From positions 248,001-312,000 of the forward strand of contig JAKVOB010000001.1 of the NCBI GenBank assembly GCA_022483015.1: 64,000 nt of DNA. Reading direction: 5' to 3'. The DNA comes from Atopobiaceae bacterium (GTDB lineage: Bacteria; Actinomycetota; Coriobacteriia; Coriobacteriales; Atopobiaceae). Each line of letters begins with the position of its first letter. Position 1 is the stretch's first letter. Of this stretch, positions 45,638-59,812 are shown one piece after another. Made by a program: the position numbers and the translations under genes. The notes below the pieces were generated by a model. The model saw only the letters and a program-made list of their open reading frames with translations, was not told the origin of the DNA and made no database searches.

Positions 45638-48600
45638 ATGTCGCCCAGACGCAGGCTCGCAACCCTCACTCTGGTGGTCGCCGCCATCCTCGCGGCCACG
45701 ATCGCAGCCCCCTCCACCGCACTCGCCGAGGGACGCTCAATCGCCTGCATGGGACGTGACACCGCAGCGGCGACCGTCGCGGACCAGCCCGACGACCTCG
45801 TGTGGGAGAGCCTGATGGACCTCCCGACCGGCACGGTCGATGACTCCTACACCACCAAGACGGACGCCCTCGAGGCGACCTCCGACGAGGGTGGCACCAC
45901 GCTCGTGCTCGTGACGTCGGAGACGCTCTCCTCCGAGGACCTCACCTGCCAACTCGAGCAACGCGATGACGTCCTCTTTGCCGACGAGGACGAGGCGACG
46001 GACGCCGAGACGGACGACGACCAGGTCACGACCCAGGGCGACACGACCTCCCAGGATGACTCCGACGTCGTCTCACCAAGCCGCACCTACCTTTCCTACC
46101 AGTGGTTCCTCAAGAACACGGGACTCATGGCATCAGGCGTGGCCGGCGCGGACATCGACCTGCCGAGCACCACCACCCGCGGCTCGGGCACCGTGGTCGC
46201 CGTGATCGACGGCGGCGTCGACGGCACCAACCCCAACCTTGCGGCCAACATGGTCGACCTCACCACCTACCCCGGGCTCCAGTCCGAGACGGGTTGCGGC
46301 ACCTGGGGCTACGACGCCACCACCTCGGGGAGCGACCACTCCCAGATCGTCGCCAGCGACCATGCCACCCATATCGCCGGCATCATGGCCGCCTGTGGGA
46401 CTGGCGGGGTGGAGGGCATTGCCTCCAACGCGAAGATCGTGTCCGTGCAGGCCAGCCCGATGCCGGCCTCCCTCATCAGGGGTTACAACTGGCTGATCGA
46501 GGCGAAGGAGGCGGGCCTCAACGTCTGCGCGGCCAACCAGTCGATAGGCATGACCATGACGCGCGCGGTAGGGGCGGCGTACCACGCCCTCTCAGATGCG
46601 GACATAGTTCTGACCTGCTCCTCGATGAACGAAGGTACGGACGTCGACGGCATGGGCACCTTCTATGGTCCCACCACCGCGACCAACGTCCTCGTGGTGA
46701 ATGCGCTGCAGTCCGATGCCATGGCTGCTCCCTACTCCTGCTACGGCCAATATTCCACATGCCTCTTTGCCCCCGGCAGCGCCCTCCTCTCGACCTCCAC
46801 CGTCGCGGGGTCGACCTTCAACGCGTTCACGGCCGCCGGCAACACGCGCTCCGGCTCCACGGGTACCCAGGCGCTCGTCTACGAGGGGTTCGAGGCGGAC
46901 TCCTCCTCCCAGGTGGACGGCGACATCGATGGGGGCCTCACCTTCACGCGCGTGACGCTCGACGAGAACGGCGCGCCCGCAGGCACCTCTGCCGAGGCCG
47001 CACCTGAGACGTCGTCGGACCAGTGGTTCCTCGGCTCTGGCTCGCTCAAGGTCGAGCAGGACGGTGACGCCTCGGCCGCGCTCCTCTCCGACCCCGTCGA
47101 CCTCTCGGGCAAGGTCGCGAGCGGCACCACGCTCTACGTCGGCCTCTCCGCCCTCACCGACAAGGGCAGCTCCGGCCTGGCCACGGTGAGCTTCAAGCTC
47201 ATGGATGGCACGTACTCGAGCCCCCAGAAGGTCTGCCAGGCCCAGTACCAGTGCTGGCGATCGACCACGTCCCTCTCGAGCGTGGACCTGACGCAGGCCC
47301 TCCCCGATGACGTGGACCTGGAGCACTTCCAGATGCTCGTGAGCATCGACTTTGACGGGAACACCACCGATGCCACGGCCTGGCTCGACTGCGTGGGCGT
47401 GGGATACGGGCGAGAGGCCATGGTCACCGCAACCGGCACCTCCATGGCCGCCCCCACGGTGGCAGGTGCGGTCGCCGTGGTGGCGGCCCAGTACCCCAGC
47501 GAGTCCGCGGAGGAGTGGTCCGCCCGCATCAAGGGAGGCACCACCAAGGAGGACCGCCTCGACGACCTCTGCCAGACGGGCGGCACCCTCGACGTGGCGA
47601 AGGCCCTCGAGGACCCCGACCCCGTACCCATAGCCATGAGCGTGAGCGGACGCACCGCCACGATGAGCGGCTGGTTCTTCTCGGAGGGGGACACCATCCT
47701 GGTCAACGGGACGGACGTGGGTCACGTCTCATGGTCGACCGATGGCGAGGGCCGGACCGTCGCGACCTTCACCCTTCCCGCCGACACCACCGACGGCTAC
47801 AACAGGTTCGCCGTCACCACCACCTCCGGCAACCAGGGACATGCCTTCCTCGACGTGGGCACGCTCGAGCGCTCGTCGGGCTACGAGGACCTCACCGTCC
47901 CGGACGAGACGGATTACTCCGACGCGTCAGGCTCATCATCGCTCGTGGCGACAGACGGCGCGATCTATCTCCTGCAGGTGTCATCGGCGTACACGGGGGC
48001 CACACTCCAGCGCTATGACATCGCATCGGACACATGGGGCGATGGCGTCGACGTCCCCGCCATCCCATCCGGCATCACAAGCTATGTGTCATACAACCTG
48101 ACAGCCATCGGTTCGAAGATCTACCTCATGGAGCAGGTCATGGGTTTCCCGACCCAGTCCTGGCTCTGCACCTACGATTGTGAGAGCGGGACGTGGGCCC
48201 AATCGGAGGTCAAGGGGTCAGACCTCTCCACCTTGACGTTGCTCTCGTGGGACGGCAAGCTCTGCCTGGCCAGTCAACACGCGTCAACGGATACCATCAC
48301 CATCTACGAGGTCGACAGCTCGACCGGCTCCCTCACGGCCCTTTTCGACGTTCCCATGGAGACGGGCGTGTATACGCAGACCAGCATCACCTCACTCGAT
48401 GACGAGCTGGTACTCTTCGACTCCTATAGCTCCTCCCTGATGGTCTACAAGAACGGGACGGCCACCTCCTACAGCCTCCCCGCGGACGTCGACAAGACGC
48501 TCGGGCAGAGCTGCGCCATCATCCCGACAAAGGACGGCATCATGTGCGTGGGGCTGGCCAGGAGGGACGGCACCGTCCAGACCGACACGGCGCTGCTCGA

Positions 48601-49009
48601 CACCGAGACGGGCACGTGGAGCTGGACAGGCAGGCTCTGCTCGTCCCAGCCCCTGGTCAACCCCATATCCGTCATGTATGACGGCAAGGTATACGTGATG
48701 GCCCTCACGGGAGACGCGGACGGCATCCTCGTCTTCCGTTCGACGGACGTCAGCACGCCCGAGCCGGACTCACCCACGACCGCGACATCACCTGACTCCC
48801 CCGCCGCGACGTCCGTCACGAGCGCAGTGACGCAGGTAGGAGAGGACGTCACGGACGACCAGCAGGCAACGCCCGCGGCCATCCCCCGCACCGCGGACAC
48901 GACCCTGCCATGGGTCCCCCGTGCGCTCGCCCTGGCAGGGGTGGGGCTCATGGGCATCGCCCTGGCTCGGCGGCGGCCAGCACGAACACGAGGGACACGG
49001 CCCCGCTGA
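45638..49009 (+). CDS. secreted subtilisin-like serine protease with beta-rich C-terminal region
   Basis: 1,123 residues with a signal peptide (LATLTLVVAAILAATIAAPS ending at ALAEG), an acidic propeptide-like stretch, and an S8 catalytic domain: Asp in VVAVIDGGVDGTN, His in SDHATHIAGIMAAC, Ser in ATGTSMAAPTVAGAVAVVA. A long insertion of about 230 residues, rich in Thr/Ser, separates the His and Ser blocks. The region after residue 770 has Kelch-like repeats. The C-terminus has AAIPRTADT, a membrane helix and a basic tail, so it is probably anchored at the surface. GGAGG precedes the ATG. It may process host or bacterial surface proteins; the substrate is unknown. Confidence 0.87.
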   Translation: MSPRRRLATLTLVVAAILAATIAAPSTALAEGRSIACMGRDTAAATVADQPDDLVWESLMDLPTGTVDDSYTTKTDALEATSDEGGTTLVLVTSETLSSEDLTCQLEQRDDVLFADEDEATDAETDDDQVTTQGDTTSQDDSDVVSPSRTYLSYQWFLKNTGLMASGVAGADIDLPSTTTRGSGTVVAVIDGGVDGTNPNLAANMVDLTTYPGLQSETGCGTWGYDATTSGSDHSQIVASDHATHIAGIMAACGTGGVEGIASNAKIVSVQASPMPASLIRGYNWLIEAKEAGLNVCAANQSIGMTMTRAVGAAYHALSDADIVLTCSSMNEGTDVDGMGTFYGPTTATNVLVVNALQSDAMAAPYSCYGQYSTCLFAPGSALLSTSTVAGSTFNAFTAAGNTRSGSTGTQALVYEGFEADSSSQVDGDIDGGLTFTRVTLDENGAPAGTSAEAAPETSSDQWFLGSGSLKVEQDGDASAALLSDPVDLSGKVASGTTLYVGLSALTDKGSSGLATVSFKLMDGTYSSPQKVCQAQYQCWRSTTSLSSVDLTQALPDDVDLEHFQMLVSIDFDGNTTDATAWLDCVGVGYGREAMVTATGTSMAAPTVAGAVAVVAAQYPSESAEEWSARIKGGTTKEDRLDDLCQTGGTLDVAKALEDPDPVPIAMSVSGRTATMSGWFFSEGDTILVNGTDVGHVSWSTDGEGRTVATFTLPADTTDGYNRFAVTTTSGNQGHAFLDVGTLERSSGYEDLTVPDETDYSDASGSSSLVATDGAIYLLQVSSAYTGATLQRYDIASDTWGDGVDVPAIPSGITSYVSYNLTAIGSKIYLMEQVMGFPTQSWLCTYDCESGTWAQSEVKGSDLSTLTLLSWDGKLCLASQHASTDTITIYEVDSSTGSLTALFDVPMETGVYTQTSITSLDDELVLFDSYSSSLMVYKNGTATSYSLPADVDKTLGQSCAIIPTKDGIMCVGLARRDGTVQTDTALLDTETGTWSWTGRLCSSQPLVNPISVMYDGKVYVMALTGDADGILVFRSTDVSTPEPDSPTTATSPDSPAATSVTSAVTQVGEDVTDDQQATPAAIPRTADTTLPWVPRALALAGVGLMGIALARRRPARTRGTRPR

Positions 49010-49069: not shown

Positions 49070-50233
49070 TCAGCGAGAGCCAAGCAGCTCGCTGCGCGCG
49101 CTCCTCACCGTGACACCGTCAGCCGTATAGTCGTCGCCGACGCGAGCGACGACGGCCCTTCTCTCTGGCGGGACACCGAGCGTCTCCCCCACGGTCCCAA
49201 GATGCCGCGCGAACCTCGGACGATACGTCTCGGATGATTTGATCTCCATGAGCTCAGGCGAGGCTGCGTCGGTGAGATCGAGCAGGTCGACCTCGACCTT
49301 GCTGTCATCGCGATAGAAACAGAGCTCGGGTTCATCGCCACCGTTGAGATGACGTTTCATGCGCTCTGCGATGACGAGGTTCTCGAACACCGCCCCGAGC
49401 ATGGGATGAACCAGCAGCTGCTCCAAGGTCTTGATCCCCAGCAGGTAGCAGAGCAGCCCCGTGTCATAGAAGTAGAGCTTGGGCGTCTTGGTGAGCCGCT
49501 TTCCCAGGTTTGCGTGGTAGGGCCTGAGCATGAACGTGACATAGCTCGACTCGAGCATCGAGAGCCATGCGCGAGCCGTGTCATGCGAGATCTGCGCCCC
49601 CTGCTCGAGCGTCACGTATCTCAGCAGTCTCCCACAGTTGCGCGCGCAGAGCCCCAGAAAGGTCCTGAACGCCGCAAGGTTCCGCACGTCGAGATAGCCG
49701 GAGACGTCACGCTCGAGGTAGGTGCTCACGTAGTTCTCGAAGAACGTCCCAAGCGGGAGACCGACGTCATAGATACGGGGGTAGCCGCCCGCGAGCATGA
49801 ACGCATCACCCGAGAGGGAAGGGTCAGCACGCAGAGCCTCATGATATGAGAGCGGGAGGAGCTTGAGCATGCCCACGCGTCCCGCAAGCGATTGCGTTAT
49901 CGCCTTGAGCATGAGGAAGTTCTGGGATCCGGAGAGGATGTATTGACCCATGCTCCCACGCTCGTCTGATGCCACCTGCACCATCGAGAAGAGCTCTGGG
50001 GCATACTGTGCCTCGTCGATGATGAGGTGATCGGGACGATTCTTGATGAAGCCCACCGGGTCGTCGAGCGCAGCGCCCCTCACCTGAGGATCCTCGAGAT
50101 TGACGTAGTCATAGCCGTCAAAGACGCTACGCACGAGCGTCGACTTGCCGCTCTGCCGGGGACCCGTCACCGACACGACGGGGAACCAGGTGGCGAGCCC
50201 CCGTGCCTGCTCCGCTATGTCCCTCTCGATCAT
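49070..50233 (-). CDS. AAA-type ATPase with DUF4143 C-terminal domain
   Basis: 387 residues. Walker A is TGPRQSGKSTLVRSVF near residue 25 and Walker B is HLIIDEAQYAPEL. Sensor-like GQYILSGSQNFLM and the C-terminal DUF4143 region (KLYFYDTGLLCYLLGIK, CFYRDDSKVEVDLLDL) follow. The end resembles a PD-(D/E)xK-like fold that often lacks full activity. Proteins of this family are abundant in gut anaerobes and have no firm function. The gene ends 60 bases from the convergent subtilase gene and is preceded by four tandem repeats at 50250-50337. Confidence 0.88.
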   Translation of the reverse strand: MIERDIAEQARGLATWFPVVSVTGPRQSGKSTLVRSVFDGYDYVNLEDPQVRGAALDDPVGFIKNRPDHLIIDEAQYAPELFSMVQVASDERGSMGQYILSGSQNFLMLKAITQSLAGRVGMLKLLPLSYHEALRADPSLSGDAFMLAGGYPRIYDVGLPLGTFFENYVSTYLERDVSGYLDVRNLAAFRTFLGLCARNCGRLLRYVTLEQGAQISHDTARAWLSMLESSYVTFMLRPYHANLGKRLTKTPKLYFYDTGLLCYLLGIKTLEQLLVHPMLGAVFENLVIAERMKRHLNGGDEPELCFYRDDSKVEVDLLDLTDAASPELMEIKSSETYRPRFARHLGTVGETLGVPPERRAVVARVGDDYTADGVTVRSARSELLGSR

Positions 50234-51044: not shown

Positions 51045-52535
51045 TTAAGCGATGTATCCAACTCTGGACACGCTGATAAGCCCTCGCTTTACCACAGTCA
51101 TCTGAATTGTGCTGGGCGTAAAGACATCAAATGAGAACTCGTCGAAAGCAGAATCTTCCTTCTCGCCACCATCGAGATTGAGTTCGTCAAACTCGAAGAC
51201 GTCCAAACCAGCCTCCTTGAGCATGGCCGCAGGAAGCTCATAGTCTTGATCGACCAGTCCAAACACGACTAGCCCCTGCTCGACGCAGAGTGATACAAAC
51301 AGCCTCTCACCAGCACTATAAAGAAGACCAGCAAAGGTCGATCCTACAAAGCTCCCGATTAGATAACCGAAGATCGGCAGCTCGATAAGCATGGCTTGTC
51401 CCACAAAACCTGCAACCAGTGAACAAGTGCTCACGAACAGATCACGCATGAGCCTATCAACCAGCTCGGCACTCTCCATCTGACCCGATGCGACCTTGAT
51501 GCTGTTCTCAAGCATATCGATGGCAATGACGGACACAGCACCGATAACGCTGGAATCAAGAGCCTTAACCGCTCCACCAAGCAGACCGATTCGAGCGGTC
51601 TCGGTAACTGCCGCTGCTACTGAGCCGATGAGAAACCCGTGAGCTCCGCCCGCAACCGCATCAGAGCTGCCCGACTTCAATAGCTCGAGGTCAATCTCCC
51701 CAGTGCGAATCAGATGCTCTATTGTCTCGAGCACCGCAGGGGCTGCAGAAAGAGCGGCAGAAATCATCGCAGCAGTCATGCCAGCCTTAACGGAGCTTTG
51801 GAGTGTCTCCTTGATGCTGGTAAACTGCGCTGGAGTTAGGCCGTACTTCGCAGGATCGAACCTACCGTTTTTGGTATCAAGAGCCAGCTGCTTTGACTCC
51901 ATACGCGTCAGCGGCTTCGAGGAATTGCCTTGGTCATCGCGAAGAACGGTGTCAAGGTGATCAAGAGCATCCTTGTAGCGCTTAACTTGCTCGGGACGAG
52001 TAGCTTGTTCTTTAGCTATCTTTCTCTCAAGGCTGTCGCGAGCCTCATCAAACTGGCCATCCGCAATAAGCCTAACCATTTTCTTATAAATCGGATCGTT
52101 CGGATCGATACCAGCTTGGTCCAAAGCACATTGGGCCGCAGGTTGATGTCTGGCCGCCTGATCGAAGGAGACAGCCTGGGCCTTCGCCGCAGCCTCTCCG
52201 TTGCGATAGTACTTCACCTGTGCCTTGGCACCATAGTTCGTTTCAATGTCAGGAGAAGCGAAGTCATGCGAGCGAGGAGCCCATGCCTCATGCGAGGAGC
52301 CGTTTCTCAAAGAGTCCATGTTGAAGGTGCGTACGTGCCAGCACTCAGCCAGGTCGCCACTAAGGGTGTCGATTGTCTTTCCGCTCGTCTCGAAGTTTGC
52401 CAAGTCCGATTCAAGAGCTGCAATCTCCGTCTCAACCTTTGGGACCCATTCCATATCCTCGGAAGCTTGCTGCGCCGCAGCGGCCGCGTCACAGTTCTTT
52501 ACGAAGTACTCGTAGCCCTCCCTGAAATCGTCCAT
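51045..52535 (-). CDS. membrane protein with a possible nuclease-like N-terminus (two-gene cassette)
   Basis: 496 residues, AT-rich codons unlike the flanks. The N-terminal 120 residues contain ECWHVRTFNMDS, a second histidine in PRSHDFASPDIETN, and AKAQVKYYRNGEAAAKAQ; D96 and the pair Q106-x-K108 would fit a QxK version of the PD-(D/E)xK nuclease core. A helical linker (120-245) is followed by glycine-zipper-like hydrophobic segments (251-270, 293-325, 329-345, 367-415) that look membrane-inserting. The C-terminus is acidic. The partner gene ends 3 bases upstream. The pair recalls a widespread cassette of unknown function; a membrane-damaging or DNA-damaging effector is a hypothesis. Confidence 0.7.
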   Translation of the reverse strand: MDDFREGYEYFVKNCDAAAAAQQASEDMEWVPKVETEIAALESDLANFETSGKTIDTLSGDLAECWHVRTFNMDSLRNGSSHEAWAPRSHDFASPDIETNYGAKAQVKYYRNGEAAAKAQAVSFDQAARHQPAAQCALDQAGIDPNDPIYKKMVRLIADGQFDEARDSLERKIAKEQATRPEQVKRYKDALDHLDTVLRDDQGNSSKPLTRMESKQLALDTKNGRFDPAKYGLTPAQFTSIKETLQSSVKAGMTAAMISAALSAAPAVLETIEHLIRTGEIDLELLKSGSSDAVAGGAHGFLIGSVAAAVTETARIGLLGGAVKALDSSVIGAVSVIAIDMLENSIKVASGQMESAELVDRLMRDLFVSTCSLVAGFVGQAMLIELPIFGYLIGSFVGSTFAGLLYSAGERLFVSLCVEQGLVVFGLVDQDYELPAAMLKEAGLDVFEFDELNLDGGEKEDSAFDEFSFDVFTPSTIQMTVVKRGLISVSRVGYIA

Positions 52536-52538
52536 GTC

Positions 52539-53186
52539 CTAGACCTTAAAGAACTTAGGCAATACATCCATGTAGACGATAAGAGTCAGTAGATTGTATT
52601 GCTGGTCTTTCGCTAAGTCAGCTTTGAACATATCACCCGCGAAGTCCACGACCTGCTTACCACGTTGGAATGCGCCGCCTGCTAGATTTGCAGCAGCATC
52701 TGCCACGGGAGAGAGAGCTTCTAGACCAACCCTTGAAAGTTCACTCCCTACGTCAGGAATGCTCGTTTTCTCAGAGGGGCTGTAGCGAAGGTCAAGCTTC
52801 TTCTCAAATCGCTTGCCATACTTCTCGCAGAGCGCGCAGAAGTCCTTGTAGTTGTCCTTATTCATGCTGTTGTTCTCAACATACATGTAGCTCTGAGTCC
52901 CAAGCATCCCGCAATGCATACCAGGCTCATAGCAGACGTCCTTGACGTTCGCTCTGACCGTCTTACCAAGATTGGTATCGCCAATGAAAAGCACATGATT
53001 CAAGGAAGTCAGCTTGACCAGATTGTCCTGGTATTGCTTACCGTTCCAGATGACAGCCTCAACACCGCCATCCTTTGTGCCCACTTGCTTGTTCTCTTCG
53101 TCATCCCGCGCGCTCACAAGTTGCCGAAGATAGGTTGCATACTTCTTCTCCCCGTCTTCGCAGACGATGATGAGCTTGTCCGTCAT
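52539..53186 (-). CDS. cytosolic partner protein of the two-gene cassette
   Basis: 215 residues from the ATG at 53186 (GAAGGAGC upstream). The N-terminus has alternating strands and helices (DKLIIVCEDGEKKYATYLRQ, GGVEAVIWNGKQYQDN, LNHVLFIGDTNLGKTV), like a small Rossmann or TIR/receiver-type fold. Around residues 145-200 is an amphipathic Ala/Gly-rich helix region. It ends 3 bases before the membrane gene, so the two are made together. It could sense a signal or hold the membrane partner in check. I do not recognise a named family. Confidence 0.68.
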   Translation of the reverse strand: MTDKLIIVCEDGEKKYATYLRQLVSARDDEENKQVGTKDGGVEAVIWNGKQYQDNLVKLTSLNHVLFIGDTNLGKTVRANVKDVCYEPGMHCGMLGTQSYMYVENNSMNKDNYKDFCALCEKYGKRFEKKLDLRYSPSEKTSIPDVGSELSRVGLEALSPVADAAANLAGGAFQRGKQVVDFAGDMFKADLAKDQQYNLLTLIVYMDVLPKFFKV

Positions 53187-53246
53187 GCGTCGCTCCTTCA
53201 CACGATAGATTGATACCTTGCTCGCTACCTTGACATTGATTGTAGG

Positions 53247-53640: not shown

Positions 53641-55590
53641 ATGCCCGACTATGCATATGGAAAGACCAACGACAAAACAAGGCGAGTCAGAGTCCTAATT
53701 GAACAAGTCTCGTCTCTGGGAGAATTAACGACGATCAATTTGCCTGCAGCAAGGGCATTGCTCGATGAGATTCAAACCGACTATTCCTCCGTCGATGATG
53801 TGTTTGTCTCTTCGGCCAGGAAGATGCTCAGCGACATCGTTTCCGATGGCACGATAGACAATGAGGAGCGAGCCCTGCTCAGGAACCTAGCAGCCACCCT
53901 TTCAAATCCCATATCCGATGAGCCCGTTTCATCATTTGACAACCAAGCATTTGTACTAACTGGTGACTTCGAAATGGAAGGCGGCAAAGAAACCGCGAAG
54001 GAAATGATTGTTGCCGCCGGAGGGATCATCAAGTCATCTGTGTCGAGAAAGACGCAGTATGTTGTGGTTGGTGCCAAGGGATCGGACGCATGGGGATACG
54101 GCAACTTTGGCAATAAGACCAAGGATGCGCTCGATCTCCAGCTTACCGGTAAATCAAACATCAAAATCGTGTCTGAGAAGGCGTTAACAGAGGCGCTAAA
54201 GTCCGCCAGTCCGGAGGCCACCAAAGTCCTTCAGGATAAGGCCGAGCTTTTCAAGAAGCAGTGGGAGTCTGCCAAGGTCGTCACGAATGACTTCACTGGG
54301 CTTACCGCAGGCCAACAGAGAGCTTTTGACCTTGTAAAAGACGGTCGAAATGTCTACCTTACTGGGCTTGGAGGCACTGGTAAATCATACGTTCTGAATC
54401 AGATAATTGACTGGGCACATTCAATAGAAAAGAACGTCATCGTCTGTGCCCCCACTGGCATAGCGGCCCTCAACGTCGGAGGCTCAACCATTCACAGAGC
54501 GCTAGGCATCGGGCCAGAGAAGCCTCTAGGAATCAATCCAAATCCCTACATTCCAAAGAACTCGCCCCTAATTGCATGCGACCTTATGATTATCGATGAG
54601 ATTTCGATGTGTCGTATGGACCTATTCGATTATCTGTCTTTAGCATTGAAGAAAGCAGCAGCCTTGAGACACTCCAGCGGCAGGGAATGCTGCCAGCTTG
54701 TCGTAGTCGGCGACTTCTGCCAATTGCCACCGGTAATCCCGAAGCCAGAACAGAAGATTCTCGATGAGAAATATGGCTTTCACGTCAGAGGTGGCTATCC
54801 CTTTATGGGCACCGAATGGAGCAGCTGGGACTTTGAAAAAGTTGAGCTGCAAGAAGCCATCAGACAACGCAACGCGAGTTTTGTCGCCGCCCTAAATGCT
54901 TGCCGTATGGGAGACCTATCTGGGGTAAGGTGGATTGACGAGCATTCTGCAAGCTCTCCACAGGATGATTCGATTGTCCTTTGTGGGCGGAATGATCAGG
55001 CGAACAGAGAGAACGAGCAGCGACTTGAGTTGCTCCCTGAAGAGACCACCCAATACGGGTCAAGAATCACTGGTGAAGTGACAATAAAAGACATGCCCAC
55101 CTCGCAGACCGTTTCTCTCAAACCGGGCGCGAGAGTAATGGCGTTGGTAAACAACTCTGATGACACCTACATGAACGGAGAACTCGGTACTGTCATCAAT
55201 TGTTCCAAGAGCGGAGCAACCGTGGATTTCGACGGTACTGGCAAGACGTTCGTCGGCATGCATACCTGGGAGATTACCGAACCATACCTCATCAATGGAA
55301 AAACGCGCACCAAGACGATAGGAACCTTCGAGCAAATCCCCCTAAAACTTGCCTGGGCTATTACAATCCACAAGTCGCAGGGACAAACGTTCGATCATGC
55401 GATTATCTATCCGGAATGCTGGGATTATGGGCAGCTCTACACGGCGCTTTCGAGACTATCGAGCGTTGATGGATTGTATTTAGTTCATGAGATGAGCGAC
55501 TCATTCCTGAAGACATCGCCAGATGTGCTCGGCCTTTCTAAACGACTGTTACAGCAGACCGGTAACCGCTGCTCCTGTTCCAACCGCTGA
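53641..55590 (+). CDS. PIF1-family DNA helicase with a BRCT domain
   Basis: 649 residues from the ATG at 53641 (GGTTGGAG upstream); the frame opens at a TTG 12 bases earlier inside that site. Residues 1-90 are helical with SDGTIDNEERALLRNLA, a small TerB-like module. Residues about 100-190 form a BRCT domain (FVLTGDFEMEGGKETAKEMI, TQYVVVGAKGSD). The helicase follows: Walker A TGLGGTGKSYVLNQ, Walker B DLMIIDEISM, VVVGDFCQLPPV, IHKSQGQTFDHAII and YTALSRLSS. PIF1 helicases unwind DNA 5' to 3'. The frame stops abruptly after SKRLLQQTGN; a further domain continues in another frame (next entry), pointing to a frameshift. Confidence 0.88.
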   Translation: MPDYAYGKTNDKTRRVRVLIEQVSSLGELTTINLPAARALLDEIQTDYSSVDDVFVSSARKMLSDIVSDGTIDNEERALLRNLAATLSNPISDEPVSSFDNQAFVLTGDFEMEGGKETAKEMIVAAGGIIKSSVSRKTQYVVVGAKGSDAWGYGNFGNKTKDALDLQLTGKSNIKIVSEKALTEALKSASPEATKVLQDKAELFKKQWESAKVVTNDFTGLTAGQQRAFDLVKDGRNVYLTGLGGTGKSYVLNQIIDWAHSIEKNVIVCAPTGIAALNVGGSTIHRALGIGPEKPLGINPNPYIPKNSPLIACDLMIIDEISMCRMDLFDYLSLALKKAAALRHSSGRECCQLVVVGDFCQLPPVIPKPEQKILDEKYGFHVRGGYPFMGTEWSSWDFEKVELQEAIRQRNASFVAALNACRMGDLSGVRWIDEHSASSPQDDSIVLCGRNDQANRENEQRLELLPEETTQYGSRITGEVTIKDMPTSQTVSLKPGARVMALVNNSDDTYMNGELGTVINCSKSGATVDFDGTGKTFVGMHTWEITEPYLINGKTRTKTIGTFEQIPLKLAWAITIHKSQGQTFDHAIIYPECWDYGQLYTALSRLSSVDGLYLVHEMSDSFLKTSPDVLGLSKRLLQQTGNRCSCSNR

Positions 55591-55936
55591 GACCGTTGAG
55601 AAGAAGCGCGCCGAATCGATTCGCGCAACGGGCAGGAAAGCATCAATCGATCGGACTAATCCAGCAGAGCAAAGGGACCAGGACAATCTGTTGTCTCTTG
55701 GTATGCCTGTTAATGCAGGCCTCAATATCCTGAGCAGGGAGGGGGTTGGCTCTCTGCACGAACTTATTGGGCTAGACGAGAGTGATTTGCTCTCGATGAG
55801 GGGGATGGGCCTATCAAAGGTCAAGAACCTTGAGCTGTTCCTCATAGGCAAACAAATCAAAAGACCCAGCTCGACACTCCCGTTGACCAAAGAAGAATAC
55901 GAAGAATGGTACCGAGAACAAGCTGCCGTAGAATAA
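55523..55936 (+). pseudogene. C-terminal helix-hairpin-helix domain, probably split from the helicase by a frameshift
   Basis: Open frame in +1 relation to the helicase gene, overlapping its last 68 bases. From about 55555 it reads naturally (TAAPVPTAETVEKKRAESI) into LSREGVGSLHELIGLDESDL and LLSMRGMGLSKVKNLELFL, a helix-hairpin-helix domain like that of the RNA polymerase alpha C-terminus. There is no ribosome site before the ATG at 55523. The simplest reading is that helicase and this domain form one 780-residue protein and that one base was lost or gained near 55550, either in nature or in sequencing. A separately translated small protein is less likely. Confidence 0.6.
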
Positions 55937-55986
55937 CAACATCTCAGCTCCTCGCTCCTTGATAGCCGCAACGATTGGAATCTGAC

Positions 55987-56928
55987 ATGTCAATCAGCGA
56001 AATCGAAGGCAAGTCCTTCTGCTTCTCAAAGAGCATCCTCTCGATTGACCCATTCGAAGGTTATCAACTCGTCGTCAACCATCACGGAGTTCCCTGCAAG
56101 TCAGTAACAAGCTCCACCGATTACCTTGTAGTCTCCGATGACATAGTCACAGGGTCGATATCAAAGAAGTATGTCGAAGAGGCAAAGGCTAAGGGCGCTT
56201 CCATTCTTGCGGAGTCACAGTTCTTAGACATGGCGGACTTCCATCAATCTCCAGCAGGAACTGCAGACCACTGGATAGTTATCGATGACTACCTGGAGGA
56301 CGGCAAGGCAGACGTTTCGAATGCCCCCGCGTGGGACAACACGGTTGCCCCCTATAAGCTGTTCATCCAGCACGGAAGCGTCAAAACCACCGACGATGGC
56401 GGCTGGAACATCGTGGACTGTGGATTGATTGACCCCATTGGGTATTCTGCGCCGAGCGTTATCAGCAACGAGAACATTACAGGAATGGTCCCTTGGTCAA
56501 AGTGGAGTAACGACATTGGTTCGGTCATAGTCAAAGATGCTTATGCGCCCAAATCGTGCGCATTCCTTTTCGATGGCTTATCTCGCTGCTCAAGCATTGA
56601 CCTATCTGGCATGGACACATCCAATGCCACGAGCATGGTTGCCATGTTCCGCGGATGTGCTTCTATTGGCTACTTCATGACTACTGATCGGTTCAAGACG
56701 AGCAACGTCACGGATATGAGTAGCATGTTCTTTGGTTGTATTAGCGCTCGCGTTATTAACTGCATAGGGTGGAGTCTGGCAAAAGTCACAAGTATGACAT
56801 CGATGTTCGAGAACTCTCCTGCAGCCGTCTTATTTGACGAATCAAACGTCCCAATCCCGCAGCATGTTAAGCAGGATGGTATGTTTGACTCTACTCCCAT
56901 AGGCGGGCGCTGGATGCGGCGTGCCTAG
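55987..56928 (+). CDS. BRCT domain protein with C-terminal DUF285 repeats
   Basis: 313 residues from an ATG at 55987; the ribosome site is weak. Residues 1-80 form a BRCT-type domain (GKSFCFSKSILSIDPFEGYQ, STDYLVVSDDIVTGS, ASILAESQFLD). Residues about 175-285 are DUF285/BspA-type repeats, usually seen in secreted lipoproteins: LFDGLSRCSSIDLSGMDTSN, SMVAMFRGCASI, VTDMSSMFFGC, VTSMTSMFENS. There is no signal peptide, so this copy should be cytoplasmic. It follows the helicase fragment by 50 bases and converges on the exonuclease gene. The combination suggests a DNA-associated recognition protein; function unknown. Confidence 0.78.
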   Translation: MSISEIEGKSFCFSKSILSIDPFEGYQLVVNHHGVPCKSVTSSTDYLVVSDDIVTGSISKKYVEEAKAKGASILAESQFLDMADFHQSPAGTADHWIVIDDYLEDGKADVSNAPAWDNTVAPYKLFIQHGSVKTTDDGGWNIVDCGLIDPIGYSAPSVISNENITGMVPWSKWSNDIGSVIVKDAYAPKSCAFLFDGLSRCSSIDLSGMDTSNATSMVAMFRGCASIGYFMTTDRFKTSNVTDMSSMFFGCISARVINCIGWSLAKVTSMTSMFENSPAAVLFDESNVPIPQHVKQDGMFDSTPIGGRWMRRA

Positions 56929-56945
56929 CTATCACGCCATAATGC

Positions 56946-57869
56946 TCATAGGGCCCTCTCGTCAATGACCGAGAGCAGCTCTCCGACCGTGATGACCTTA
57001 GTCCCATACTCTTTCGCATGCTCTAATTTCGAGGGTCCAGCATTATCGGCAATCGCAAGATATTCAGTAAATTTCCCAACGTTATTCTGGGGATGGGCAC
57101 CTTTCGCCTTGAGATACTCCTCGATGGAATTGCCAACGTAGCCAGGCACGGCACCTGTAACGACCAACTTCATGCCAATCAAACTGTCAATATCAGCCGG
57201 GTTCCCTCTTAGGCCCATAGAGGCGAGTTCGGTTAGCACTTCTTCAATGGTGACATCAGTGCCATGTACATGACCTAGCCCGCTTGGACAAGCTGGTTGA
57301 TGGCCATAACCCTTCTTCGAAGTCGCCGGAGTTTGCTCGCTCCCCCATTCACATCCAGCTGGCACTCCATACTCAAAACTCATCTTCTCGAAGAGTTCCT
57401 TACAGGCCGTTGCATCGCACATGGCATCATGATGATTATCGATTTTGATGCCGTAATGGTCACAGGCAGCCCGAAGCGACCCAACACGCAGGTGCTCTAC
57501 AGCCATAGGCATCGTGTCAATAAAGGAAACGGAGGGCATAGCAATGCCATATGCTCTAAGGCTCTTCTCAATGTGATGCAAATCGGCCCCAGCAGCATTA
57601 TGGGCAACGAATGTATACCTCTCTAAACTAATGAGAAAGCTAGAGGTATCGCAGAAGGTCTTCATGTTAGGCTTACCAACGACATCAGCTTTTCTTACTC
57701 GATGACAGCGAATGGTCATCGGTTCAAATGCACTTTCTGGATCGATTAGCTGTGTAACGGGCTTGGCAATTCTGTTGAAGTCATTGTCCGTTATTTCATA
57801 GGCAAGCTGGCAGATTCTCTGCCCCGAATTAGCTGTCTCATCGTCAAAGAACATGTAACCGTTTGGCAT
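56946..57869 (-). CDS. DnaQ-like 3'-5' exonuclease with C-terminal BRCT domain
   Basis: 307 residues. DEDDh exonuclease motifs: Exo I FFDDETANSGQRI, Exo II TFVAHNAAGADLHHI, Exo III NHHDAMCDATACKELF with the HD pair. The C-terminal 85 residues are a BRCT domain (DSLIGMKLVVTGAVPGYVGN, NVGKFTEYLAIADNAGPSKL). This layout is found in stand-alone exonucleases related to the DNA polymerase III epsilon chain. It lies tail to tail with the BRCT-DUF285 gene (17 bases apart). Codon use is AT-rich like its neighbours. Confidence 0.88.
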   Translation of the reverse strand: MPNGYMFFDDETANSGQRICQLAYEITDNDFNRIAKPVTQLIDPESAFEPMTIRCHRVRKADVVGKPNMKTFCDTSSFLISLERYTFVAHNAAGADLHHIEKSLRAYGIAMPSVSFIDTMPMAVEHLRVGSLRAACDHYGIKIDNHHDAMCDATACKELFEKMSFEYGVPAGCEWGSEQTPATSKKGYGHQPACPSGLGHVHGTDVTIEEVLTELASMGLRGNPADIDSLIGMKLVVTGAVPGYVGNSIEEYLKAKGAHPQNNVGKFTEYLAIADNAGPSKLEHAKEYGTKVITVGELLSVIDERAL

Positions 57870-57979: not shown

Positions 57980-59671
57980 TCAAACCGTAGGAAAGTACTT
58001 AGCAAAGTAAGCTCTCAATGTTGGGTCCTCAACATAGACGTGAGTCCCCAGTATCCCTCGGGTCAACAAGACGTAATAGATGTTCTTGATGTAGCGGTCG
58101 AGATCCTTATCCGACGCCGTGGCATAGCCATTCCGATCGTAATAGCTAGCTCGGTTGGATATCGGGATACCGCTCTTTGCATCAATCATCAGGTCGTTCC
58201 CGATGATCACGTACGCATAGCTAAGGTCATATCCTTGAATGGAGTGAATACATCCGACCTCATGCGCCACCTGCGGATCATTGATACCACGACCTACCCA
58301 GTTGTCATAGGTGCAGTTCCATCGCAGCCCGATGTCATCGATGACGATATCAAGGGCATCTCGGTCTTTCTTCGAGACCCATTTCCACGCATATCCAGCA
58401 ACCATCCTGCTGAGGTCGTGCACCTCATAATCCTTCTCGAAGCTATCAACAAAGCTACCGAAGTCTTCATGGAGTAGAAGGTCATATCCCTCGAAGTGTC
58501 GATGACTAGAGCACTCGCCATCGAGTATCTCCTGGATGTACTCGAGATAGACCTTCCCGCCCTTCACGCGCATCTGGCTCTCGAGCTCAATTGGGCTCTC
58601 AACGGCTTTGCCCAACGTGCTCTTCACGGCATCGCTTCCGAGACATGAGGGGCCAATGCTCTGCAGAGGATCGTAGAAGAAAATCGGGAGTTTCGCTTGA
58701 TCAATGATCCAGTCCATTTGTGTCGCCTGCTTGGGTAGCCCAAGCTCCCTGTTGACATCATCATAGTTTCCAAACTGGGTGCCCAGGTTCGTGCGACGTT
58801 TCAGCTTGTGAGCTTCGTCAACCAGCAGAATATCGAAGCTCTTCTCACCATCTGCCTTATAACCCATACTTGGTTTCACGAGATCCATCGGCCCGATAAT
58901 ATCTGACGAGTTAAGGCCACTCACGTTAGCCAAAGACTTCTGCAACGTCTTTTTAAGCGATGTCACTGGTTCAACGACGCGGACGTTCATGCCCGCATAA
59001 CGAGGATTATCGCGTAGCGTCTTCAGGAGATACGTGGCCAGTACTGTCTTGCCCGTACCCGGCATCCCCTCGACCACAATGGGTTCCGCATTCTCAAGCC
59101 CGGTGTCTATGGCACAAAGTATCTTGTCTAGTGCTGACCGCTGATCAATGGTCAGACCTTTGAACGGAGAGTACTTGAACACCTCGGACTCCTCAATCTC
59201 CGAGATGCTGTGCTCAGCAAGATCCAGCCCGCGCAAGTCCTCCCATAGCTCTCCGAACATATCCTCGTACTCAGCCTTACTGAAGTAATTTGTGTCTGTC
59301 ATCCCATCATTTTTGTTAGTGAGCGTGTACCTACCATCCGCATGCATGTAGCCGATGAGACGATGCTCATAGTCGGTAATGACAGACGCATTGAACTCAT
59401 CGTTGTAGATGATGTTCACGGTCTCGAAGTCGCGCTTCTCCTCATTCGCACCGTGTTGGCCCATTCTAGTCACCACGCTCGTGGTCTGACCAACATATGC
59501 GGTGTCCTCATTGGCAAGGATATAGACCATTGGCCAGTTGAAGACCTTGTCCTCTGCCAGGTCGAGGGTTGCATAACTAATCTGCTCACCGTAGTGGAAC
59601 GGGCATCTATCAATAAGGAACGGCGAGCCTTTGGGACGTTCGGCCGTCTCGCTTGTAGGTATGGTTATCAC
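57980..59671 (-). CDS. GIY-YIG nuclease fused to DUF2075 helicase-like ATPase
   Basis: 563 residues from a GTG at 59671; a GTG at 59683 directly abuts the only ribosome site (GAGGA) and is less likely. The N-terminal 125 residues hold a GIY-YIG endonuclease core: MVYILANEDTAYVGQTTSVV, arginine in TRMGQHG, glutamate in DYEHRLIGYM. Then a P-loop ATPase of the DUF2075 superfamily: Walker A VVEGMPGTGKTVLATYLLKT, Walker B DILLVDEAHKLKRR, and a C-terminal helicase part (EVGCIHSIQGYDLSYAYVII, YVLLTRGILGTHVYV). Nuclease-helicase fusions of this kind often serve in phage defence. Low-GC like the island. Confidence 0.85.
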   Translation of the reverse strand: MITIPTSETAERPKGSPFLIDRCPFHYGEQISYATLDLAEDKVFNWPMVYILANEDTAYVGQTTSVVTRMGQHGANEEKRDFETVNIIYNDEFNASVITDYEHRLIGYMHADGRYTLTNKNDGMTDTNYFSKAEYEDMFGELWEDLRGLDLAEHSISEIEESEVFKYSPFKGLTIDQRSALDKILCAIDTGLENAEPIVVEGMPGTGKTVLATYLLKTLRDNPRYAGMNVRVVEPVTSLKKTLQKSLANVSGLNSSDIIGPMDLVKPSMGYKADGEKSFDILLVDEAHKLKRRTNLGTQFGNYDDVNRELGLPKQATQMDWIIDQAKLPIFFYDPLQSIGPSCLGSDAVKSTLGKAVESPIELESQMRVKGGKVYLEYIQEILDGECSSHRHFEGYDLLLHEDFGSFVDSFEKDYEVHDLSRMVAGYAWKWVSKKDRDALDIVIDDIGLRWNCTYDNWVGRGINDPQVAHEVGCIHSIQGYDLSYAYVIIGNDLMIDAKSGIPISNRASYYDRNGYATASDKDLDRYIKNIYYVLLTRGILGTHVYVEDPTLRAYFAKYFPTV

Positions 59672-59812
59672 AGCTCGTCGCACTTCCTCGAATTGTCTTG
59701 CTGCTCTCAGAGGAACGCTTCCCGTTGCCCGTCATCATCTTATCGCAGAGATCGCTTACCTCGCAGGCCAAGAACGCATGCTTGGTCACTGTCCTTGCCG
59801 TCGCACCAACCA

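What the first reader, a model, noticed from the sequence alone, without database searches (positions are those of the whole stretch)
53641..57869. Three neighbouring genes each carry a BRCT domain: PIF1 helicase, BRCT-DUF285 protein, DnaQ-like exonuclease
Seen: BRCT-like segments at the N-terminal third of the helicase, the N-terminus of the BRCT-DUF285 protein and the C-terminus of the exonuclease, within 4.2 kb of low-GC DNA. Known: bacterial BRCT domains are mostly limited to NAD-dependent DNA ligase and some exonucleases. Inference: a shared BRCT may bring helicase, nuclease and recognition protein together at DNA ends, which would be a new DNA-processing or defence module.
Basis: partly seen in the sequence, partly recalled or inferred. 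Interest (0 to 1): 0.8.

Follow-up and report, generated by a model that had tools for sequence, protein, structure and literature searches.

The report
BRCT-linked helicase–exonuclease gene trio
Three neighbouring genes in a gut-type bacterium encode a DNA-unwinding motor, a DNA-chewing enzyme and a repeat protein that share a rare docking domain; the set recurs on mobile DNA and in a defence island of related bacteria, so it is probably a small, undescribed machine for processing DNA ends, perhaps against phages.

Summary
All three genes carry a BRCT domain. Two pass Pfam's cut-off; the third passes in a whole-genome search and matches solved RFC1 and LigA BRCTs. Profile comparison links all three to LigA or to each other, with controls near zero. 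In this genome every BRCT gene found, other than ligA, lies in this 4.2 kb. The association is not chance: among 140 family genomes the BRCT-Pif1 helicase occurs in four and the BRCT-DUF285 protein in five, adjacent in all four shared genomes. Two relatives (G052, G175) have the full same-strand operon on integrase-bearing elements. In a fifth genome BRCT-DUF285 is fused to an exonuclease-BRCT, beside a Gabija GajB gene and a TOTE primase-helicase. The most likely reading is a 5'→3' helicase and a 3'→5' DEDDh exonuclease held together through BRCTs at DNA ends to degrade foreign DNA. Assembly and defence are inferred, not shown. The parts are known (PDC-S48-type exonuclease, Pif1); the combination and a cytosolic BRCT-DUF285 adaptor are undescribed in the literature searched. 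Caveats: very narrow distribution, weak structure models, a frameshifted helicase tail, and an exonuclease of another lineage in this window.

The parts
53641..55590 (+). BRCT-Pif1 helicase gene (649 aa from ATG): N-terminal four-helix TerB-like segment, BRCT, SF1B Pif1 core with Walker A (GGTGKS), Walker B (DEIS), GDFCQLPP and KSQGQTF motifs
   Evidence: Pfam PIF1 92.5 bits, UvrD_C_2 27.6, BRCT 25.1; PDB Pif1 structures E=1e-74; 61% identical full-length relatives
53671..53901 (+). helical N-terminal segment of the helicase, TerB-like by pattern (not called by Pfam)
   Evidence: AF2 helices 11-27, 34-47, 54-67, 74-87; with the BRCT it matches PHROG 3989, which also matches the C-terminal part of an exonuclease-TerB-BRCT protein
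53935..54189 (+). BRCT domain of the helicase
   Evidence: Pfam 25.1 bits; hhalign to LigA BRCT 96.8%; LigA/RFC1 BRCT in PDB; its profile recovers LigA-sized ORFs across the phylum
55523..55936 (+). C-terminal helix-hairpin-helix tail of the helicase, here in another frame; continuous with the helicase in G175 and in the C-terminal ORF of G052
   Evidence: tblastn of the G175 helicase: frame 2 up to residue 630, then frame 3 from 632 to 764; weak HhH hit
55987..56928 (+). BRCT - conserved middle region - DUF285 (PARCEL-type repeat) protein, 313 aa, no signal peptide or lipobox seen
   Evidence: Pfam DUF285 46.6 bits, BRCT 22.1 bits; four relatives in the order; NCBIfam PARCEL repeat models
56005..56232 (+). 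BRCT domain of the BRCT-DUF285 protein
   Evidence: Pfam 22.1 bits; hhalign 92% to the relatives' exonuclease BRCT, 40% to LigA, controls at most 1.3%
56560..56820 (+). DUF285 repeats
   Evidence: Pfam PF03382 E=3.5e-12
56946..57869 (-). DEDDh 3'-5' exonuclease with C-terminal BRCT (307 aa); DxE, D and HxxxxD catalytic residues present
   Evidence: RNase_T 55 bits; PADLOC PDC-S48 E=1.2e-25; invariant catalytic columns in alignment
56967..57170 (-). BRCT domain of the exonuclease
   Evidence: RFC1 and LigA BRCT in PDB E about 5e-5; hhalign to LigA 95.8%; 38% identity to a plasmid LigA C-terminus
57980..59683 (-). neighbour: GIY-YIG + Schlafen group 3 helicase gene; possible but unproven partner
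   Evidence: Pfam SLFN-g3_helicase 178.7 bits; a 24% identical protein lies just upstream of a helicase N-terminus in G042, whose contig then ends

Best explanation
A small, horizontally moving DNA-end processing system whose most likely role is defence against phages or other incoming DNA. Proposed mechanism: BRCT domains, of the LigA/RFC1 type that bind 5'-phosphate DNA ends and other BRCTs, bring the three proteins together at a free DNA end. The Pif1 motor runs 5'->3' on one strand and peels off the other from its 3' end; the DEDDh exonuclease digests that 3' end as it is exposed. The BRCT-DUF285 protein is the adaptor: its BRCT docks on the nuclease or helicase, and its repeat surface selects or regulates the target. 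Shown here: domain content, intact catalytic motifs, conserved neighbourhood, gene fusion, purifying selection, mobile and defence-island setting. Inferred: polarity and coupling of the enzymes (from family knowledge), physical assembly through BRCTs, the role of DUF285, and defence as the benefit.
For: BRCT in all three. Conserved linkage: BRCT-DUF285 in 5 of 397 genomes of the order, five different genera; full-length BRCT-Pif1 in 4 of 140 family genomes, always adjacent to BRCT-DUF285 (co-occurrence p about 3e-7). Same-strand operon with gaps of 2 and 43 nt in G175. Fusions: exonuclease-BRCT-BRCT-DUF285 in G114; exonuclease fused to a relative of the helicase's N-terminal module in G025, G038, G143, G188, G288. 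Mobile: G052 element between 66-bp perfect repeats at tRNA-Pro with tyrosine integrase and MobC; G175 with integrase and relaxase. Defence context: G114 fusion between GajB (E=1.6e-141) and a TOTE primase-helicase; exonuclease-TerB-BRCT of G143 next to ShosA; the exonuclease matches the PADLOC candidate PDC-S48; a related exonuclease on a S. aureus plasmid lies between an XRE regulator and a DpnII endonuclease beside an integrase, another beside restriction-type helicase and methyltransferase genes. Purifying selection: dN/dS 0.06-0.16 between G052 and G175. Analogy: a 5'-3' helicase joined to a 3'-5' exonuclease works as one machine in S. aureus DinG (PMC12345164); BRCTs bind DNA-end phosphates and each other (PMC10386641).
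Against: No phage or binding data exist. Only five loci are known; G052 and G175 share a related integrase (69%), so they are not fully independent. G051 has an exonuclease-BRCT only elsewhere in the genome, and G114 has no Pif1 nearby. The window exonuclease is convergent with the other two genes and belongs to another exonuclease lineage. The helicase tail is frameshifted here, and the G052 helicase is frameshifted too. The AF2 model of the DUF285 protein is uninformative. The same enzyme pairing also serves DNA repair (DinG, MrfAB).
Confidence: 0.5

Rival explanations
1. A DNA repair module: helicase and DEDDh exonuclease process crosslinked or broken DNA, as in S. aureus DinG or B. subtilis MrfAB, with BRCTs recruiting them to nicks and ends. 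It protects the host or element rather than fighting phages.
For: Same enzyme polarity in DinG (PMC12345164); helicase plus DEDDh exonuclease in MrfAB (PMC11194089); BRCT kinship with LigA; a chromosomal exonuclease-BRCT exists in G051 and G030.
Against: Patchy presence in 5 of 397 genomes, integrative elements and a Gabija/TOTE neighbourhood fit accessory defence better than core repair.
Confidence: 0.22
2. A function of the mobile element itself: processing of the element's DNA during excision, transfer or replication, for example clearing ends after relaxase nicking.
For: On integrase plus relaxase or MobC elements in G052 and G175; Pif1-like helicases with up to 38% core identity sit on many plasmids.
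Against: G114 sits among defence genes, and no integrase was recognised close to the genes in the window or in G051.
Confidence: 0.15
3. Two things side by side: a helicase plus BRCT-DUF285 pair that forms the real unit, and an unrelated DEDDh-BRCT exonuclease that happens to be next to it in the window.
For: In the window the exonuclease is convergent and from a different lineage; G051 has only the pair.
Against: Exonuclease-BRCT is in the operon in G052 and G175 and fused to BRCT-DUF285 in G114; in the window another exonuclease-BRCT occupies that place.
Confidence: 0.13

Closest known systems
PADLOC candidate PDC-S48 (exonuclease with C-terminal BRCT) and NCBIfam NF004844 (PRK06195, 'DNA polymerase III subunit epsilon')
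   Same: DEDDh core plus BRCT; the window exonuclease matches PDC-S48 at E=1.2e-25, and the helicase BRCT matches the C-terminal end of both models
   Different: those models describe single proteins; here it is one of three BRCT proteins, and the window protein is far below the NF004844 cut-off (46.9 against 373 bits)
S. aureus DinG (exonuclease-helicase fusion, PMC12345164)
   Same: 3'-5' exonuclease working with a 5'-3' helicase
   Different: SF2 helicase in one chain with the exonuclease, no BRCT described, shown to act in crosslink repair
MrfAB of B. subtilis (PMC11194089)
   Same: separate helicase and DEDDh exonuclease acting together
   Different: different helicase; mitomycin C repair; no BRCT or DUF285 partner is described in the abstract read
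Gabija (GajA + GajB)
   Same: helicase plus nuclease defence logic; a GajB homologue is a neighbour in G114
   Different: UvrD helicase and OLD nuclease; neither is in the trio
Bacterial Pif1-like helicases on plasmids
   Same: same helicase core, 36-38% identity to Lactobacillus plasmid proteins
   Different: the two checked have no BRCT call in Pfam and no BRCT-DUF285 or exonuclease-BRCT annotated beside them
DUF285/PARCEL surface lipoproteins (Mycoplasma, Listeria)
   Same: same repeat family
   Different: here there is an N-terminal BRCT and no visible export signal, so the protein is presumably cytosolic

Membership tests
BRCT (PF00533) | profile match in the helicase | tested here: met
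   25.1 bits against cut-off 21.3; hhalign 96.8% to LigA
BRCT (PF00533) | profile match in the DUF285 protein | tested here: met
   22.1 bits; G051 homologue 21.4 bits, G175 homologue not reported; hhalign 92% to the exonuclease BRCTs
BRCT (PF00533) | profile match in the exonuclease | tested here: met
   18.9 bits in hmmscan (below cut-off), 21.9 in the genome search (above); PDB RFC1/LigA E about 5e-5
BRCT (PF00533) | predicted fold | tested here: inconclusive
   helicase BRCT element order at pLDDT about 65-80; DUF285 protein mean pLDDT 36; exonuclease not folded
Pif1-like SF1B helicase | Pif1 core and motifs | tested here: met
   PF05970 92.5 bits; PDB Pif1 E=1e-74
DEDDh exonuclease | catalytic DxE / D / HxxxxD residues | tested here: met
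   invariant D9, E11, D96, H147, D152 across five proteins
NF004844 / PRK06195 | score over the curated cut-off of 373 | tested here: not met
   46.9 bits
PDC-S48 (PADLOC candidate) | match to the profile | tested here: met
   E=1.2e-25 in two stretches; relatives 1e-22 to 1e-34; antiphage activity of the family itself is not established
Gabija | GajA OLD nuclease plus GajB UvrD helicase | tested here: not met
   no such families in the trio
RecD / RecBCD | score over RecD or RecD2 cut-offs | tested here: not met
   RecD2 106 against 500; RecD 58 against 310
DUF285/PARCEL surface proteins | export signal or lipobox | tested here: not met
   N-terminus MSISEIEGKSFCFSKS runs straight into the BRCT (by inspection; no signal-peptide program was available)
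TerB | TerB profile in the helicase N-terminus | tested here: not met
   no Pfam TerB call; only helical content and sequence pattern suggest it
Antiphage defence system | protects cells from phage | not testable with these tools
   context only

The most novel reading that the evidence does not exclude
A new class of bacterial immune complex in which BRCT-BRCT contacts, as in eukaryotic DNA-damage assemblies, join a Pif1 helicase and a DEDDh exonuclease, and a cytosolic DUF285 repeat protein senses an invader's protein or DNA end and licenses DNA degradation.
Probability: 0.2. Interest if true: 0.82.

Novelty: new variant of a known kind. Interest (0 to 1): 0.62.

Why it matters
Bacterial BRCT domains are known mainly from DNA ligase. 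A mobile three-gene unit in which every member carries one would be a simple bacterial model of BRCT-based assembly at DNA ends, and could explain why PDC-S48-type exonucleases carry a BRCT. It also gives DUF285 (PARCEL) repeats, known from surface proteins, an apparent role inside the cell as an adaptor in DNA processing or defence. The fusion and operon data make the physical-link idea directly testable.

Tried and rejected
Chance adjacency of unrelated BRCT genes: rejected by the operons, the fusion and the co-occurrence. Phage origin: no relative of the DUF285 protein's N-terminal half or of the helicase N-terminus in viral contigs; the viral hits were to the DUF285 repeats only. Plasmid Pif1 helicases as carriers of the same BRCT: two Lactobacillus examples have none in Pfam. 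AF2 with four sequences failed for the DUF285 protein, so no fold search was run on it; Foldseek on the weak helicase model mainly returned Pif1, with RFC and a LigA-containing chain further down. Empty-site comparison with the other genome of the genus failed, because the flanks lie about 400 kb apart there. Short direct repeats around the window island are no better than chance would give. One exonuclease tree included a wrong-frame row (G047) and was redone without it. No paper joins BRCT and DUF285 or mentions PDC-S48.
Full report
Observation. Pfam gives PIF1 (92.5 bits), DUF285 (46.6) and RNase_T (55), and BRCT at 25.1, 22.1 and 18.9 bits, cut-off 21.3. The exonuclease BRCT passes the cut-off in the genome-wide search (21.9), matches solved RFC1 and LigA BRCTs at E about 5e-5, and is 38% identical to the end of a plasmid LigA. 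The helicase BRCT matches LigA and RFC1 structures, and its profile recovers LigA-sized ORFs across the phylum. In profile comparison, LigA against helicase, exonuclease and DUF285-protein segments gives 96.8%, 95.8% and 39.8% (E=3e-4); the DUF285-protein BRCT against the exonuclease BRCTs of the relatives gives 92.2%; control segments stay at or below 1.3%. The BRCT genes detected by search in this 2.28-Mb genome are ligA, the helicase and the exonuclease; adding the weaker DUF285 one, all except ligA sit in this 4.2 kb.

Anatomy. The helicase has an N-terminal four-helix segment, then a BRCT with the expected alternation of strands and helices in the AF2 model (pLDDT about 65-80 there, low elsewhere), then a complete Pif1 core (best PDB match E=1e-74). 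In G175, and in the C-terminal ORF of G052, a helix-hairpin-helix tail follows in frame; in the window the tail is in another frame (55523-55936). The ligA gene of this genome is also interrupted by a frame change relative to G001, so an assembly error is a fair explanation; the G052 helicase has a frameshift too. The exonuclease keeps the DEDDh residues. The DUF285 protein has a BRCT, a conserved middle region without a known relative in the PDB, and DUF285 repeats, which NCBIfam relates to PARCEL repeats of surface lipoproteins. It has no visible export signal, so it is probably cytosolic (by inspection).

Conservation of the set. With a profile of the BRCT and middle region, relatives were found in 5 of 397 genomes of the order, each in a different genus of one family; a sixth genome gives only a weak hit to the BRCT part. 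Named copies are Atopobiaceae/Coriobacteriaceae metagenome assemblies. Full-length BRCT-Pif1 was found in four of 140 family genomes, and all four have BRCT-DUF285 next to it (hypergeometric p about 3e-7). G175 has exonuclease, BRCT-DUF285 and BRCT-Pif1-HhH on one strand with gaps of 2 and 43 nt. G052 has the same order. G051 has BRCT-DUF285 followed after 9 nt by BRCT-Pif1, and its exonuclease-BRCT is elsewhere. G114 has an exonuclease-BRCT followed by a 641-aa fusion exonuclease-BRCT-BRCT-middle-DUF285. In G025, G038, G143, G188 and G288 the exonuclease is fused to a relative of the helicase's own N-terminal helical-BRCT module, and PHROG 3989 covers that module in the window helicase and in the G143 protein. 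Fusions therefore link the exonuclease with each of the other two. Between G052 and G175 the genes are under purifying selection (dN/dS 0.064, 0.12, 0.16).

Setting. The G052 set lies between two perfect 66-bp repeats 9.2 kb apart, one overlapping tRNA-Pro(GGG), with a tyrosine integrase, a MobC-like protein and DUF3800. G175 has a 69% identical integrase and a MobA-type relaxase. These two are therefore related elements, not fully independent evidence. G114 has a GajB helicase on one side and an AEP-TOTE primase-helicase on the other. The exonuclease-TerB-BRCT of G143 adjoins ShosA near a serine recombinase. Related exonucleases lie beside an XRE regulator, a DpnII endonuclease and an integrase on a S. 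aureus plasmid and beside restriction-type genes in Priestia. The exonucleases tested match PDC-S48 of PADLOC; the PDC entries are described as unpublished candidate systems (PMC11811056). The window island itself has no recognisable integrase or repeats, and its flanks are far apart in the other genome of the genus.

The window copy differs from its relatives. Its exonuclease is convergent, lacks the C-terminal extension of the G052/G175 proteins, and in the tree sides with the exonuclease-TerB-BRCT group (100/100) rather than with the operon exonucleases (unrooted, drawn at the midpoint). Either one DEDDh-BRCT exonuclease replaced another, which would mean that the module needs such a partner, or the window exonuclease is only a neighbour.

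Mechanism. From family knowledge Pif1 moves 5'->3' and DEDDh enzymes digest 3'->5'. A helicase peeling a strand from its 3' end gives a matching substrate, and S. aureus DinG shows such a pair working together (PMC12345164). BRCTs bind DNA-end phosphates (TopBP1, RFC), and BRCTs also pair with each other (PMC10386641). The proposal is therefore a BRCT-held helicase-exonuclease on DNA ends, with the DUF285 protein as adaptor. Of the residues known to me (from memory, not tested) for 5'-phosphate binding in RFC1, the TG pair is kept in the exonuclease and helicase BRCTs and is missing in the DUF285 one; this would fit DNA binding for the first two and protein contact for the third, but it is only a hint. 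Defence is preferred over repair or element upkeep because of patchiness, mobility and neighbours; it is not shown.

Novelty. The parts are known; the threefold BRCT arrangement and BRCT-DUF285 have no description in the library searched, and no defence profile in PADLOC covers the DUF285 protein. I rate it a new variant of a known kind, the helicase-nuclease systems.

Noticed in passing
window 57980-59683 (-): GIY-YIG plus Schlafen group 3 helicase gene directly beyond the exonuclease; a 24% identical protein lies upstream of a cut-off BRCT-Pif1-type N-terminus in G042 (L023 5058-7190), with a MazG-like gene before it. Possible fourth component.
   Followed up: partly
window 51045-53201 (-): Two genes of unknown family divergent from the helicase; the 496-aa one has a partial match to PADLOC candidate PDC-M09B (E=2.9e-10).
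   Followed up: partly
window 49070-50233 (-): AAA/DUF4143 protein strongly matching PADLOC candidate PDC-S01 (E=4.6e-89) at the edge of the low-GC island.
   Followed up: no
L027 about 1998-2006 (own genome C1 near 61 kb): The ligA gene changes frame relative to the other genome of the genus, suggesting indel errors in this assembly.
   Followed up: partly
L147 3649-8646: Exonuclease-TerB-BRCT gene next to an XRE regulator, a ShosA/DprA-like gene and a serine recombinase.
   Followed up: partly
L062 4627-6978 and 13072-15021: TOTE primase-helicase and GajB genes flank the exonuclease-BRCT-BRCT-DUF285 fusion; any gajA would lie at or beyond the contig end.
   Followed up: partly
window 45638-49009 (+): Large subtilisin-like protease gene (1123 aa, GTSMAAP motif) just left of the island; the left flank maps to a different part of the chromosome from the right flank in G001.
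   Followed up: no
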